Origin: Phytoactinopolyspora endophytica
GTDB taxonomy: Bacteria; Actinomycetota; Actinomycetes; Jiangellales; Jiangellaceae
Length of the DNA stretch: 11,736 nucleotides
Assembly (NCBI RefSeq): GCF_004138495.1
Contig: NZ_ML142857.1
Location: forward strand, 206,694-218,429
Reading direction: 5' to 3'
The translations under genes were made by a program, and so were the position numbers. Positions within the stretch are counted from its first letter, which is position 1; every line of letters starts with the position of its first letter. A model generated the notes under the pieces. It was not told the origin of the DNA. It ran no database searches and saw nothing but the letters and a program-made list of their open reading frames with translations. This document shows, one piece after another, positions 4,606-8,436 of the stretch.

Positions 4606-5646
4606 ATGACCTACCGCGAACCAGCACTAACAGCGGCCCGCCGCGCCCGGTCGCTGGCGCCGCCGTCTTCCTCGGCCGTCCCAACGATGGGAATGACGAT
4701 CTACGGATGCGGGCCGGACGAGGCCATTTTGTTCCTCCAGATGGCGCCTCGCTTCGGCGTTACGCCGACCATCACTGAGGCTGCGGTAACTGAAGCCAAT
4801 ATTGAGCAGGCATTGGGAAACCGATGCATCAGCGTGGGTCACAAGAACCACATCACCGATTCCACCCTTCTCGCACTCAGCAAGATCGGCGTGACGTACA
4901 TCTCCACACGAAGCATTGGATGCAACCATATCGATGTGGGATACGCGGAGAGCGTCGGCATCTGTGTTGAAACTGTCGCCTATTCGCCCGATAGCGTGGC
5001 CGACTACACGCTGATGCTGATGTTGATGGCCGTGCGTAATGCAAAGTCCATGATCCGCCGTGCGGCTATTCACGATTACAGATTGCATGACGTACGCGGG
5101 AAGGAACTACGCGATCTGACCATCGGGGTCATTGGCACGGGACGCATCGGCGCGGCAGTCATGGACAGGCTGCGGGGCTTCGGTTGCCGAATCCTGGCCC
5201 ATGACACTCGCCCGAAGACCGCTGCCGATTACGTTCCTCTCGATGACTTGCTACATATGAGCGACATTGTCACGCTCCACACACCGCTCAACCCGGATAC
5301 CCACCATCTCCTCAATCGCCAACGGATCGAGCGGCTGAAGCATGGCGCGTTCATCATCAACACCGGACGCGGGTCACTTCTTGACACCGAGGCGCTCGTT
5401 CCAGCATTGGAGAGCGGCAGATTGGGCGGTGCGGCATTGGATGTCCTCGAAGGAGAAGAAGGCATATTCTACGCCGATTGCAGAAACAGACCCATCGAAA
5501 GCGAGCTGTTGCTGCGGCTGCAAGAGCTGCCAAATGTGCTCATCAGTCCGCACACCGCCTATTATACGGACCACGCCCTGAGCGACGCCGTTGAAAACTC
5601 TATTGTCAACTGCCTCAAATTCGAAAGCAGGAATCAGCATGGATAG
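4606..5646 (+). CDS. vanH: VanH: D-lactate dehydrogenase (pyruvate reductase) with a leader-derived N-terminal extension
   Basis: VanH reduces pyruvate to D-lactate with NAD(P)H, feeding VanA. It belongs to the D-2-hydroxyacid dehydrogenase family. Signatures are ITDSTLLALSKIGVTYISTR, the VanH-typical SIGCNHIDV and VAYSPDSVADYTLMLMLMAV, the nucleotide loop GVIGTGRIG, and the catalytic Arg in NTGRGS, Glu in VLEGEEG and His in SPHTAYYT. Homology to enterococcal VanH begins at MGMTIYGCGPDEA, the ATG at 4687, which would give 319 residues. That ATG lacks a clear Shine-Dalgarno site. The ATG at 4606 has GGGAGG and the promoter, and would add 27 residues (MTYREPALTAARRARSLAPP and seven more) equal to the leader ORF before femX. 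I give the longer form; initiation at 4687 remains possible. It overlaps vanA by 8 bp. It looks lower in GC than murF and femX, consistent with transfer. Confidence 0.93.
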   Translation: MTYREPALTAARRARSLAPPSSSAVPTMGMTIYGCGPDEAILFLQMAPRFGVTPTITEAAVTEANIEQALGNRCISVGHKNHITDSTLLALSKIGVTYISTRSIGCNHIDVGYAESVGICVETVAYSPDSVADYTLMLMLMAVRNAKSMIRRAAIHDYRLHDVRGKELRDLTIGVIGTGRIGAAVMDRLRGFGCRILAHDTRPKTAADYVPLDDLLHMSDIVTLHTPLNPDTHHLLNRQRIERLKHGAFIINTGRGSLLDTEALVPALESGRLGGAALDVLEGEEGIFYADCRNRPIESELLLRLQELPNVLISPHTAYYTDHALSDAVENSIVNCLKFESRNQHG

Positions 5647-6709
5647 GTTGAAGATAGGAATCATCTTCGGGGGTGGTTTCGAGGAGCATCCTATCTCCGT
5701 CAAGTCCGCGCAAGAAGTCGCCAAGAACCTCGATCTCGAAAAATACGAACCGTTCTACATCGGGATCACGAAGAGCGGCGCTTGGGTGCTCTGCGACGGT
5801 CCCGACGTCGGCTGGGAGGACGGCCTCTACCGTCCGGCCGTGCTGTCACCGGACCGAAGCATCCCCGGATTGCTCGTGCTGGAGCAGGGGCGGTACGAAT
5901 TGATCGGCCTGGACGTCGTGTTGCCTGTCCTGCACGGCAAGATCGGCGAGGACGGCGCGATCCAAGGCTTGCTGGAGCTCTCCGGCATCCCCTACGTGGG
6001 CTGCGATGTCCATAGTTCCGCCGTGTGCATGGACAAGTCCCTCGCCTACATCGTCGCCGGCAGCGCGGGAATCGCCACGCCGAGGTTCTGGACCGTCACG
6101 GCGAACGAGGACCTCGAGACCGACCGGCTCAGCTATCCCGTCTTCGTGAAGCCGGCCCGTTCGGGTTCATCCTTTGGAGTCAGCAAAGTCTCCGCGAAAG
6201 AAGAATTACCGAGTGCACTGAAGACCGCACGACAGTTTGACTCGAAGGTGCTGATCGAGGAGGCGGTCGTCGGCAGCGAGGTCGGCTGTGCCGTCCTGGG
6301 GAACGATTCGGATCTGACGACCGGCGAGGTGGACCGAGTCGCTCTGTCTCATGGGTTCTTCAAGATCCATCAGGAGGATGACCCCGAAAGCGGATCCGAG
6401 AACGCGACCTTCATCGTTCCCGCGGACATTCCAGTCGAGTCACGCGCGCTCGTTCAGGAAACGGCCAAGTCGATCTATCGCGCTCTGGGCTGCCGGGGAC
6501 TGGCGCGGGTGGACCTGTTCCTCACCGAGGATGGAAAGGTCGTCCTCAACGAGGTCAACACGCTGCCGGGCATGACCTCGTACAGTCGTTATCCGAGGAT
6601 GATGGCCGCCGCGGGGTTGCCGCTTTCCGACGTGATCGACCGGATGGTGTCGTTGGCAATGAACGGAAAAGACGATGAAGGCAGATGTCACGTCAGAAAT
6701 CCGTTTTGA
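5639..6709 (+). CDS. vanA: VanA-type D-alanine:D-lactate ligase
   Basis: This 356-residue ATP-grasp ligase makes the depsipeptide D-Ala-D-Lac, whose incorporation into cell-wall precursors lowers glycopeptide binding. Specificity is visible in the sequence: the omega-loop reads FFKIHQEDDPE with His at 244, the residue and number that mark enterococcal VanA-type D-Lac ligases, where D-Ala-D-Ala ligases have Tyr. Other family positions are conserved: E16, LHGKIGEDGAIQG (98-110), S177 in ARSGSSFGV, LIEEAVVGSEVGC (205-217), LNEVNTLPGMTSYSRYPRMM (303-322) with Y315. One oddity is GGGFEEHPIS near the N-terminus, with Phe where VanA and Ddl have Ser. It starts 8 bp inside vanH (ATGGATAG), so the two are coupled. 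The gene that normally follows, vanX, is absent; a GNAT gene comes 47 bases later. Confidence 0.96.
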   Translation: MDRLKIGIIFGGGFEEHPISVKSAQEVAKNLDLEKYEPFYIGITKSGAWVLCDGPDVGWEDGLYRPAVLSPDRSIPGLLVLEQGRYELIGLDVVLPVLHGKIGEDGAIQGLLELSGIPYVGCDVHSSAVCMDKSLAYIVAGSAGIATPRFWTVTANEDLETDRLSYPVFVKPARSGSSFGVSKVSAKEELPSALKTARQFDSKVLIEEAVVGSEVGCAVLGNDSDLTTGEVDRVALSHGFFKIHQEDDPESGSENATFIVPADIPVESRALVQETAKSIYRALGCRGLARVDLFLTEDGKVVLNEVNTLPGMTSYSRYPRMMAAAGLPLSDVIDRMVSLAMNGKDDEGRCHVRNPF

Positions 6710-6756
6710 ATGGCGTCTGGAGTGTGGACATACCTGAGACGTTGACAGGGGAAGGC

Positions 6757-7233: not shown

Positions 7234-7326
7234 CGCAGGACAACTACGTCTCGCGGGTCCTCGGACTGTTTCGCGACGACTTCGTGAATCCCGCGCCAAC
7301 AGGATCGCTCGGCGACGGGGGCAGGC

Positions 7327-8436
7327 ATGACGGCACCACGCGTCGTTGTCGCCGGCGGCCACTCGGCCGGGCACATCGAGCCCGCGATGAACTTCGCCGA
7401 CGCGCTGCGTCGGCTGGAGCCCACGGCCGAGATCACCGCCCTCGGCACCGTCCGCGGCCTGGACACCACGCTCATCCCGGCCCGCGGCTACCCGCTCGAA
7501 CTCATCCCGCCGGTGCCGCTGCCGCGCAAGCTGAACCGGGACCTGCTGCAGACACCGGGCAGGCTGCGCGACTCGGTCCGGGCGGCCGGGGCGGTGCTCG
7601 ACCGCATGCGGGCCGAGATCGTGGTGGGCTTCGGCGGCTACGTGGCCGGGCCGGCCTACATCGCCGCCCGCCGACGCGGCCTGCCGATCGTCGTCCACGA
7701 GGCGAATGCCCGGCCCGGAGTGACCAACCGGCTGGCGGCCCGGATGACGACCCACGTGTTCACCGCCGCGCCGACTGTCCGGCTGGCCCACGCGACCGCC
7801 ATCGGGATCCCGCTGCGACCGGCGATCACCACTCTCGACCGGCCTGCGCTGCGCGACACGGCCCGGCAGCGGTTCGGCCTACGACCCGACGGGCCGGTAC
7901 TGATGGTCACGGGCGGCTCGCAGGGCGCCAGGGCGATCAACGCCGCGGTATCCGGCGCGGCCGCCGCGTTACGAGCGACCGGTGTGCAGGTGCTGCACAT
8001 CACCGGGCCGCAGCACGTCATCGAGATGCCGGACGGCGACCTCGGCGACCCGCCCTACGTCGCCATCCCCTACGTCGACGAGATGCAATACGCGTACGCC
8101 GCGGCCGACTTCGTGATCTGCCGCTCGGGGGCGATGACGTGCGCCGAGCTGGCCGCCGTCGGCCTGCCGGCCGCGTACGTCCCGTTGCCGCTGCGCGGCG
8201 GTGAGCAGCGACTGAACGCCGAGCCGGTCGTCGCGGCCGGCGGGGCACTGCTCGTCGACAACGCCGACCTCGACCCGGCCTGGATCGAGACCACGCTGAT
8301 CCCGCTGCTCACCGATCCCGAGCGGATCGCGGCGACGTCGGCCCACGCATCGGCGGCCGGCGCTCCTGACGCGGGCGTCGTCTTGGCCCGGCACGTGCTC
8401 ACCACGGTCGGCGAGCGACGTAGGTTCGCCTCATGA
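7327..8436 (+). CDS. Second MurG-like (GT28) undecaprenyl-PP-MurNAc GlcNAc transferase
   Basis: The 369-residue protein has the two-domain GT28 layout of MurG, which adds GlcNAc to lipid I to make lipid II at the inner membrane face. Visible signatures are the N-terminal loop VVVAGGHSAGHIEPA (6-20), VVGFGGYVAGP (99-109), VVHEANARPGVTNRLAAR (122-139), VTGGSQGARAIN (194-205), and the UDP-GlcNAc region RSGAMTCAELAAVG (266-279) with GGEQRLNAEP (291-300). The first loop is unusual: MurG normally has GGGTAGH or GGTGGH, here GGHSAGH, though the likely catalytic His (H16) is kept. Lying outside the division cluster, it is a paralogue; I recall MurG-like genes called murX in some glycopeptide clusters, which needs checking. 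AGGC directly precedes the ATG. It is probably the last gene of the vanHA-GNAT transcript, 93 bases after GNAT, and converges on vanS. Confidence 0.87.
   Translation: MTAPRVVVAGGHSAGHIEPAMNFADALRRLEPTAEITALGTVRGLDTTLIPARGYPLELIPPVPLPRKLNRDLLQTPGRLRDSVRAAGAVLDRMRAEIVVGFGGYVAGPAYIAARRRGLPIVVHEANARPGVTNRLAARMTTHVFTAAPTVRLAHATAIGIPLRPAITTLDRPALRDTARQRFGLRPDGPVLMVTGGSQGARAINAAVSGAAAALRATGVQVLHITGPQHVIEMPDGDLGDPPYVAIPYVDEMQYAYAAADFVICRSGAMTCAELAAVGLPAAYVPLPLRGGEQRLNAEPVVAAGGALLVDNADLDPAWIETTLIPLLTDPERIAATSAHASAAGAPDAGVVLARHVLTTVGERRRFAS

What the first reader, a model, noticed from the sequence alone, without database searches (positions are those of the whole stretch)
4606..8436. A vanHA cluster without vanX but with its own MurF, MurG and FemX
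VanH and a VanA-type ligase (His244) are intact, yet none of the frames holds a VanX-like M15 dipeptidase; the only such zinc motif belongs to VanY. Without VanX, host D-Ala-D-Ala would compete for incorporation. The cluster instead carries paralogues of the later enzymes that handle the stem peptide. Inference: a D-Lac-preferring MurF may replace VanX as the selective step, with MurG and FemX paralogues matched to D-Lac-ended precursors and VanY trimming the leakage. That would be a different resistance layout from vanHAX.
Basis: partly seen in the sequence, partly recalled or inferred. Interest (0 to 1): 0.85.

Follow-up and report, generated by a model that had tools for sequence, protein, structure and literature searches.

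The report
Vancomycin-resistance cluster that lost vanX
[quoted passage not shown] the extra cell-wall genes beside it are usual companions rather than a replacement, so it is a natural test of whether vanX is needed.

Summary
VanH, VanA (D-Ala-D-Lac ligase), FemX/VanK, MurF, MurG, VanR, VanS and VanY are open, and no VanX-family gene was found in the assembled genome (94% complete). The interpretation mostly fails. Actinopolymorpha alba has the same layout WITH vanX between vanA and murG, and the same MurF type stands in 31 vanX-bearing loci, so MurF, MurG and FemX did not arrive as substitutes. The window shows a loss scar: just past vanA the DNA matches sequence that in relatives lies 5-22 nt downstream of the vanX stop, and a GNAT gene sits in vanX's place. 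In a class sample 20 of 21 vanA-bearing genomes have vanX adjacent; this one is the exception. The other genes show no clear decay. Most likely it is a natural vanX-loss derivative of an ordinary vanHAX cluster, making D-Ala-D-Lac precursors mixed with D-Ala-D-Ala ones, the latter trimmed by membrane-bound VanY (inferred). VanX-less vanHA loci with MurF and GNAT are reported from Ktedonobacteria (PMC9689679). No phenotype is known.

The parts
1640..1737 (+). promoter-like repeat (putative VanR box) upstream of femX; it also duplicates the first codons of vanH
   Evidence: the repeat finder family D1, 94% identical to 4542-4639; VanR binding is inferred, not tested
1787..2899 (+). FemX/VanK-type aminoacyl transferase
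   Evidence: PF02388 E=1.9e-52; 92% identical to the A. alba copy; start ATG 1787 read from the sequence (the calls used 1772)
2931..3107 (+). remnant of a second GNAT gene after femX
   Evidence: 81% nt identity of 2931-3005 to 6756-6830; two short phmmer hits of 23 and 31 bits; a GNAT of 219-235 bits stands after femX in L002, L026 and L065
3157..4518 (-). MurF paralogue (UDP-MurNAc-tripeptide:D-Ala-D-X ligase)
   Evidence: TIGR01143 407.6 bits, over cut-off; a second MurF is at C1:697948 among other Mur-ligase matches; start ATG 4518 read from the sequence (calls used TTG 4530)
4542..4639 (+). promoter-like repeat between murF and vanH, running into the vanH start
   Evidence: family D1
4606..5646 (+). 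VanH D-lactate dehydrogenase
   Evidence: NF000492 540.1 bits, cut-off 540
5639..6709 (+). VanA-type D-Ala-D-Lac ligase; its frame runs about 12 residues beyond where the match to relatives ends
   Evidence: NF000206 606.6 bits, cut-off 550; tail shared by none of the 120 relatives listed out of 4162 hits
6675..6757 (+). scar where vanX is missing: vanX start-like ATGAAGG at 6675, then sequence homologous to DNA downstream of the vanX stop in relatives
6757..7233 (+). GNAT acetyltransferase in the vanX position (alternative start 6685)
   Evidence: PF00583; 353 relatives at E<=1e-10; AF2 model mean pLDDT 86.4, ordinary GNAT fold
7327..8436 (+). MurG paralogue
   Evidence: TIGR01133 239.5 bits, just under the cut-off 250.25; PF03033 and PF04101
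8461..9621 (-). VanS sensor kinase
   Evidence: NF033094 VanS-O 588.2 bits, below the allele cut-off 720
9560..10255 (-). VanR response regulator
   Evidence: NF033118 VanR-O 475.8 bits, below the allele cut-off 505
10279..10376 (+). promoter-like repeat upstream of vanY, third copy
   Evidence: 67% identity over the whole 98 nt
10342..11043 (+). VanY D,D-carboxypeptidase with N-terminal membrane segment
   Evidence: PF02557; SxHxxGxAxD and ExxH motifs, hydropathy maximum over 19 residues from residue 16; closest model VanY-N, 57.5 bits, cut-off 250

Best explanation
This is an ordinary actinobacterial vanHAX-type cluster, probably acquired horizontally and mosaic, that has lost vanX (shown by comparison), with a GNAT gene now directly after vanA. 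MurF, MurG and FemX/VanK are usual accessory partners of vanHAX and not a substitute for VanX (shown by co-occurrence). How it works (inferred): glycopeptide activates VanS-VanR; three similar promoter repeats switch on femX, vanHA-GNAT-murG and vanY (and probably murF, which diverges from vanH); VanH and VanA make D-Ala-D-Lac; MurF, MurG and VanK carry it into the wall. Because host Ddl-family enzymes are expected to go on making D-Ala-D-Ala and no VanX destroys it, the wall precursors are mixed, and membrane-anchored VanY trims the D-Ala-ended ones outside. Expected phenotype: resistance present but weaker than in a vanHAX relative.
For: Same gene order with vanX in A. alba L001. 20 of 21 vanA genomes in a 393-genome class sample have vanX adjacent, only this one lacks it; 8 of 9 in the family (these 9 are part of the 21). 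Scar: window 6705-6757 aligns 5 nt past the vanX stop of Jiangella L118 (local score 78, next locus 32); 6685-6708 aligns 22 nt past the vanX stop of L020 (20 of 24 nt; score 32, above the 95% shuffle limit 28 but below the shuffle maximum 35). Mosaic, against four loci compared: 6300-6600 nearest A. alba (93% nt), 6711-7200 nearest J. aurantiaca L118 (92 and 88%), murG nearest A. alba or J. endophytica. None of the 4 other same-genus genomes has vanA. Other genes: no stops; VanA has 0 private changes at 125 near-invariant columns among 78 sequences; pairwise dN/dS of the window with relatives 0.06-0.47, one pair apart. VanY motifs and membrane segment. S. coelicolor delta-vanX J3225 reacted to Zn-vancomycin like its resistant parent, while the sensitive delta-vanRS strain showed no Zn effect (PMC5501778, passages); I infer that VanX is not absolutely needed there.
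Against: No resistance, expression or precursor data exist. In enterococci VanX is called essential (PMC4790382, passages and cited titles), so the cluster could be dead. In Amycolatopsis balhimycina VanY played no decisive role (PMC7325946, passages). MurF has two non-conservative private changes, F250N and Y390H; MurG has 6 private changes, as many or more in only 2 of 16 others, and VanS 3, in only 4 of 45 others; VanA dN to three outgroups is slightly above that of A. alba; a second GNAT is a remnant. All of this would also fit incipient decay. A recent loss cannot be dated from one genome.
Confidence: 0.7

Rival explanations
1. The cluster is non-functional: loss of vanX ended useful resistance and the rest has not yet decayed.
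For: VanX is described as essential in enterococci (PMC4790382, passages); Ddl-family genes present; a GNAT remnant and odd MurF, MurG and VanS changes; the only case among 21 vanA genomes.
Against: All nine cluster genes are free of stops; VanA, VanR and GNAT have no private change at near-invariant sites; pairwise dN/dS is low; S. coelicolor delta-vanX seems to keep its remodelled wall (PMC5501778, passages; my inference).
Confidence: 0.2
2. One reading: a D-Lac-preferring MurF replaces VanX as the selective step.
For: A MurF paralogue is in the cluster besides another MurF at C1:697948; three private substitutions.
Against: 31 vanX-bearing loci of the compared set carry the same MurF type; the window MurF is 70-86% identical to those; 7 of the 31 have as many or more private changes; the loss scar shows vanX was once there.
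Confidence: 0.05
3. A different enzyme does VanX's job: an M19-family dipeptidase elsewhere in the genome, or a VanX-like side activity of a VanY.
For: Two M19-family genes in the genome; two more VanY-family frames, one VanY-N-like at C1:267391 and one LdcB-like at C1:315768; M19 sits after vanA in Ktedonobacter racemifer (PMC9689679); VanYn of Nonomuraea is bifunctional (PMC4790382, passages).
Against: The M19 genes lie on other contigs (C10, C1) than the cluster (C9), and their relation to it is untested; the window VanY scores only 57.5 bits against VanY-N (cut-off 250) and is membrane-anchored, presumably on the wrong side for cytoplasmic dipeptide.
Confidence: 0.1
4. vanX is present but unassembled, or the gap is an assembly error.
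For: Genome 93.95% complete, 64 contigs.
Against: The junction lies inside a 252-kb contig, and each side matches relatives at the places flanking vanX with the divergence expected of old DNA rather than a plain join of two modern sequences.
Confidence: 0.05

Closest known systems
vanHAX clusters with murF, murG, femX/vanK and GNAT in Actinobacteria (Actinopolymorpha alba L001, Microlunatus speluncae L017, Jiangella; PMC8698665 describes Jiangella anatolica vanHAXS with vanK, MurF-, MurG- and GNAT-like genes)
   Same: Gene set, order and orientation; VanH, VanA, VanK, MurF, MurG, VanRS and VanY are close homologues
   Different: vanX is missing and the GNAT directly follows vanA
VanX-less van loci of Ktedonobacteria (PMC9689679); here L006, L025, L074 and the Chloroflexi MAG locus L041
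   Same: vanHA without vanX, with MurF in three of the four loci seen here and a GNAT in two of the four
   Different: There a pair of M15B and C39 peptidases lies between vanRS and vanHA (PMC9689679); MurF only about 39% identical; another phylum and probably a separate loss
vanI cluster of Desulfitobacterium (PMC4229326, passages)
   Same: Incomplete van core with murF and, in some strains, vanK
   Different: It lacks vanH but keeps vanX
VanYn resistance of Nonomuraea (PMC4790382, PMC7325946, passages)
   Same: Membrane-bound VanY-type peptidase with the same motifs as the only D,D-peptidase of the cluster
   Different: No vanHA there; the window VanY is only distantly similar (57.5 bits)

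Membership tests
vanHAX D-Ala-D-Lac resistance cluster | VanH D-lactate dehydrogenase | tested here: met
   NF000492 540.1 bits, cut-off 540
vanHAX D-Ala-D-Lac resistance cluster | D-Ala-D-Lac ligase | tested here: met
   NF000206 606.6 bits, cut-off 550
vanHAX D-Ala-D-Lac resistance cluster | VanX D,D-dipeptidase | tested here: not met
   0 PF01427 matches in the genome; 0 matches with A. alba VanX
vanHAX D-Ala-D-Lac resistance cluster | VanR-VanS pair | tested here: met
   Best models VanS-O and VanR-O, both below the cut-off of the exact allele
vanHAX D-Ala-D-Lac resistance cluster | Inducible glycopeptide resistance | not testable with these tools
   needs MIC and precursor analysis
Ktedonobacteria-type vanX-less locus | vanHA without vanX | tested here: met
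Ktedonobacteria-type vanX-less locus | M15B and C39 peptidase pair between vanRS and vanHA | tested here: not met
   The recognised genes in that interval are GNAT and MurG; among the 10 scanned proteins only VanY has an M15-type domain; C39 was not searched genome-wide
MurF with altered D-Lac selectivity | Preference for D-Ala-D-Lac over D-Ala-D-Ala | not testable with these tools
   needs an enzyme assay
MurF with altered D-Lac selectivity | MurF type specific to vanX-less clusters | tested here: not met
   Same MurF type in 31 vanX-bearing loci
VanY-N (VanYn) | Score over the NCBIfam cut-off | tested here: not met
   57.5 bits against 250

The most novel reading that the evidence does not exclude
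A dipeptidase-free D-Ala-D-Lac pathway: the GNAT that stands in vanX's place takes over its job, for instance by acetylating the free amino end of D-Ala-D-Ala so that MurF cannot use it, with VanY removing what leaks through. Hints: vanX seems to have been lost beside this GNAT at least once more (metagenome protein P0052 starts with a VanX stretch fused to the GNAT), two of four vanX-less Chloroflexota loci carry a distant GNAT, and one GNAT is fused to a VanY-type domain (P0081). Against: 12 of 74 van loci have both vanX and a GNAT next to it, the same reaction would threaten D-Ala-D-Lac too, and the fold gives no substrate hint.
Probability: 0.04. Interest if true: 0.75.

Novelty: new variant of a known kind. 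Interest (0 to 1): 0.36.

Why it matters
VanX is described as one of three essential enzymes of high-level vancomycin resistance (PMC4790382, passages). A natural cluster that kept the other parts open but lost vanX lets one ask whether actinomycetes need it at all, and what the often-seen but unexplained MurF, MurG and GNAT companions do. It also warns that annotation of vanHA does not imply vanX.

Tried and rejected
MurF as VanX substitute: tested by co-occurrence and private substitutions, not supported. GNAT as VanX substitute: the model gave a generic GNAT fold with no substrate hint and only 4 weak sequence hits in the PDB. My first reading that 6675-6715 holds a piece of the vanX body (one search showed an 11 of 12 nt match in L118) was dropped: the best match of 6680-6712 among 73 loci is downstream of the vanX stop in L020 (score 32, null 95% limit 28, null maximum 35); the second, L010, is also downstream but scores 26, under the limit, and the L118 body match scores 20. 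The left piece 6672-6700 matches the vanX start of L117 (25) and the region downstream of vanX in L020 (24) about equally, so the exact left breakpoint, within about 6676-6685, is unsure. DppA (PF04951): one match of 27 profile positions only. (35 genomes, family of G126) re-drew genomes already in the class sample (8 of 8 vanA genomes with vanX) and add nothing. Flanks: 10 of the 26 frames picked were scanned, 5 had no Pfam match and none had a transposase or integrase domain, so the transfer route is unknown. Paper searches: 0 papers; 1; 1; I saw listings, and passages of PMC8698665, PMC9689679 (section 3.3 whole), PMC4229326, PMC4790382, PMC7325946, PMC6022977 and PMC5501778; supplementary tables were not available, so an unlabelled vanX-less entry in the 2021 survey is possible. 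One query (L001:14473-15090) was mis-framed and not used. The calls used 1772, 5636 and 4530 as starts of FemX, VanA and MurF; likely ATG starts are 1787, 5639 and 4518.
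Full report
What is there. The window (G000:C9:206694-218429, a 7.6-Mb genome in 64 contigs, 93.95% complete) holds FemX/VanK 1787-2899 (+), MurF 3157-4518 (-), VanH 4606-5646 (+), VanA 5639-6709 (+), a GNAT acetyltransferase 6757-7233 (+), MurG 7327-8436 (+), VanS 8461-9621 (-), VanR 9560-10255 (-) and VanY 10342-11043 (+). A 98-nt repeat with a promoter-like core stands before femX and vanH (94% alike) and, less alike (67%), before vanY, so one VanR regulon is likely (inferred). 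The genome belongs to a family that includes Jiangella: contigs of G008, G009 and G010 have the lengths of named Jiangella asiatica, J. aurantiaca and J. endophytica contigs (so L121 and L065 are the same locus). The window's genus is another one of that family and is unnamed here.

VanX is absent from the assembly. PF01427 finds nothing in the own genome but finds VanX beside VanA in all 8 other vanA-bearing genomes among the 22 of the family. A VanX query from Actinopolymorpha alba gives the same answer. The host has Ddl-family genes at C15:116917 and C3:75802, so D-Ala-D-Ala is expected, and a second MurF at C1:697948.

It is a loss, not a different design. Of 80 loci found with VanA, 74 are van loci and 68 of these carry VanX next to VanA; the six without are four Chloroflexota loci (L006, L025, L041, L074), an orphan vanA in Kibdelosporangium philippinense (L062) and a broken vanA in a Ruminococcaceae MAG (L066). 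In a class sample of 393 genomes 21 have VanA at E<=1e-120, and 20 of those have VanX directly beside it; the exception is this genome. Actinopolymorpha alba L001 has femX, divergent murF, vanH, vanA, vanX, murG, vanS, vanR and vanY in the window's order. Twelve of the 74 loci have VanX followed by a GNAT, among them Microlunatus speluncae L017, which also has MurF, MurG and FemX.

The scar. After the end of vanA a vanX-like start (ATGAAGG, 6675) remains; from 6685 on the DNA matches sequence that lies downstream of the vanX stop in relatives: 6685-6708 in L020 (20 of 24 nt, 22 nt past the stop) and 6705-6757 in L118 (5 nt past the stop). The L118 match is strong (score 78, next best locus 32). 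The L020 match is above the 95% shuffle limit (28) but not above the shuffle maximum (35), so the left breakpoint within about 6676-6685 is approximate. The vanA frame runs about 12 residues further than the match to relatives; none of the 120 relatives listed (of 4162 hits at E<=1e-150) shares that tail. The cluster is mosaic, judged against four loci: vanA up to 6600 nearest A. alba, 6711-7200 nearest J. aurantiaca L118, murG nearest A. alba or J. endophytica by block (7320-7500: 95 and 97%). So either vanX was deleted from a vanHAX-GNAT-murG cluster, or recombination swapped vanX for the GNAT. I cannot separate these two.

Are the rest alive? No gene has an inner stop. Pairwise dN/dS of the window's genes with relatives is 0.06-0.47, apart from one comparison (VanR with L119, 0.73) in which the partner is probably not the true VanR orthologue. 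dN of the window's VanA to three outgroups is slightly above that of A. alba (to L118 0.111 against 0.094, to L119 0.124 against 0.120, to L121 0.148 against 0.138). At columns invariant but for at most one sequence, the window has 0 private changes in VanA (125 columns, 78 sequences), 1 in VanH, 1 in FemX, 3 in MurF, 6 in MurG, 3 in VanS, 0 in VanR, 1 in VanY and 0 in GNAT. As many or more are seen for MurF in 7 of 31 others, for MurG in 2 of 16, for VanS in 4 of 45. So there is no clear decay, but MurF F250N and Y390H and the MurG and VanS counts leave room for some. The loss cannot be dated with one genome.

Why MurF is not the likely replacement. The same MurF type occurs in 31 vanX-bearing loci of the compared set, 70-86% identical to the window copy. 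MurF, MurG, vanK and GNAT beside vanHAX are described in print (PMC8698665, passages; murXst, staO and murF2, PMC4790382, passages).

How it most likely works. Shown: gene content, absence of vanX in the assembly, open frames, VanY motifs and membrane segment. Inferred: VanRS induction; a D-Ala-D-Lac supply by VanHA; mixed precursors because Ddl continues; VanK, MurF and MurG carrying the D-Lac form; VanY trimming D-Ala-ended pentapeptide outside. VanX is called essential in enterococci (PMC4790382), but an S. coelicolor delta-vanX mutant reacted to Zn-vancomycin like the resistant parent while the sensitive delta-vanRS strain showed no Zn effect (PMC5501778, passages). I take this as a sign that VanX is not absolutely needed in a Streptomyces; the text that I saw gives no MIC for that mutant. 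In Amycolatopsis balhimycina VanY was not decisive (PMC7325946, passages), which speaks against a large VanY effect.

What is known and what is new. VanX-less vanHA with MurF and GNAT has been reported for Ktedonobacteria, with an M15B and C39 peptidase pair and many transposase genes (PMC9689679, section 3.3 read). An actinobacterial vanHA cluster that lost vanX I did not find in print (searches; no supplements). A metagenome protein, P0052, starts with a VanX stretch (YATWDNFTGKPVDGYLANR, compared by eye with the VanX of L001) fused to this GNAT. It is one of 17 GNAT proteins with a longer N-terminus printed out of the 120 listed (of 353 hits). So vanX loss next to the GNAT seems to have happened at least twice. 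This is a new variant of a known kind, of modest interest until a phenotype is measured.

Noticed in passing
1640-1737 and 4542-4639: The region before femX is a 94% copy of the vanH promoter together with the first codons of vanH, as if the promoter had been duplicated to bring femX under VanR.
   Followed up: partly
2931-3107: Remnant of a second GNAT gene between femX and murF; relatives L002, L026 and L065 have a longer GNAT match there.
   Followed up: partly
protein P0052 (metagenome, contig 2755 bp): GNAT whose N-terminus is a VanX stretch: an apparently independent vanX loss by fusion.
   Followed up: partly
protein P0081 (metagenome): Fusion of the same GNAT with a VanY-type peptidase domain (PF02557); by eye without a membrane segment.
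   Followed up: no
L062 10001-11023: Orphan vanA-type ligase in Kibdelosporangium philippinense without a vanH or vanX match within the 10-kb flanks.
   Followed up: no
L066 9344-11022: VanH and VanA matches split over several frames in a Ruminococcaceae MAG (broken copy).
   Followed up: no
L118 11554-11619: Short MurG remnant (34 bits) after the GNAT in Jiangella aurantiaca, so these accessory genes seem to be gained and lost.
   Followed up: no
G000:C1:267391 (L082, L125): Second VanY-like gene of the genome, beside a NarL-like regulator frame; 140 bits to the window VanY.
   Followed up: partly
9560-9621: The listed frames of vanR and vanS overlap by 62 nt.
   Followed up: no
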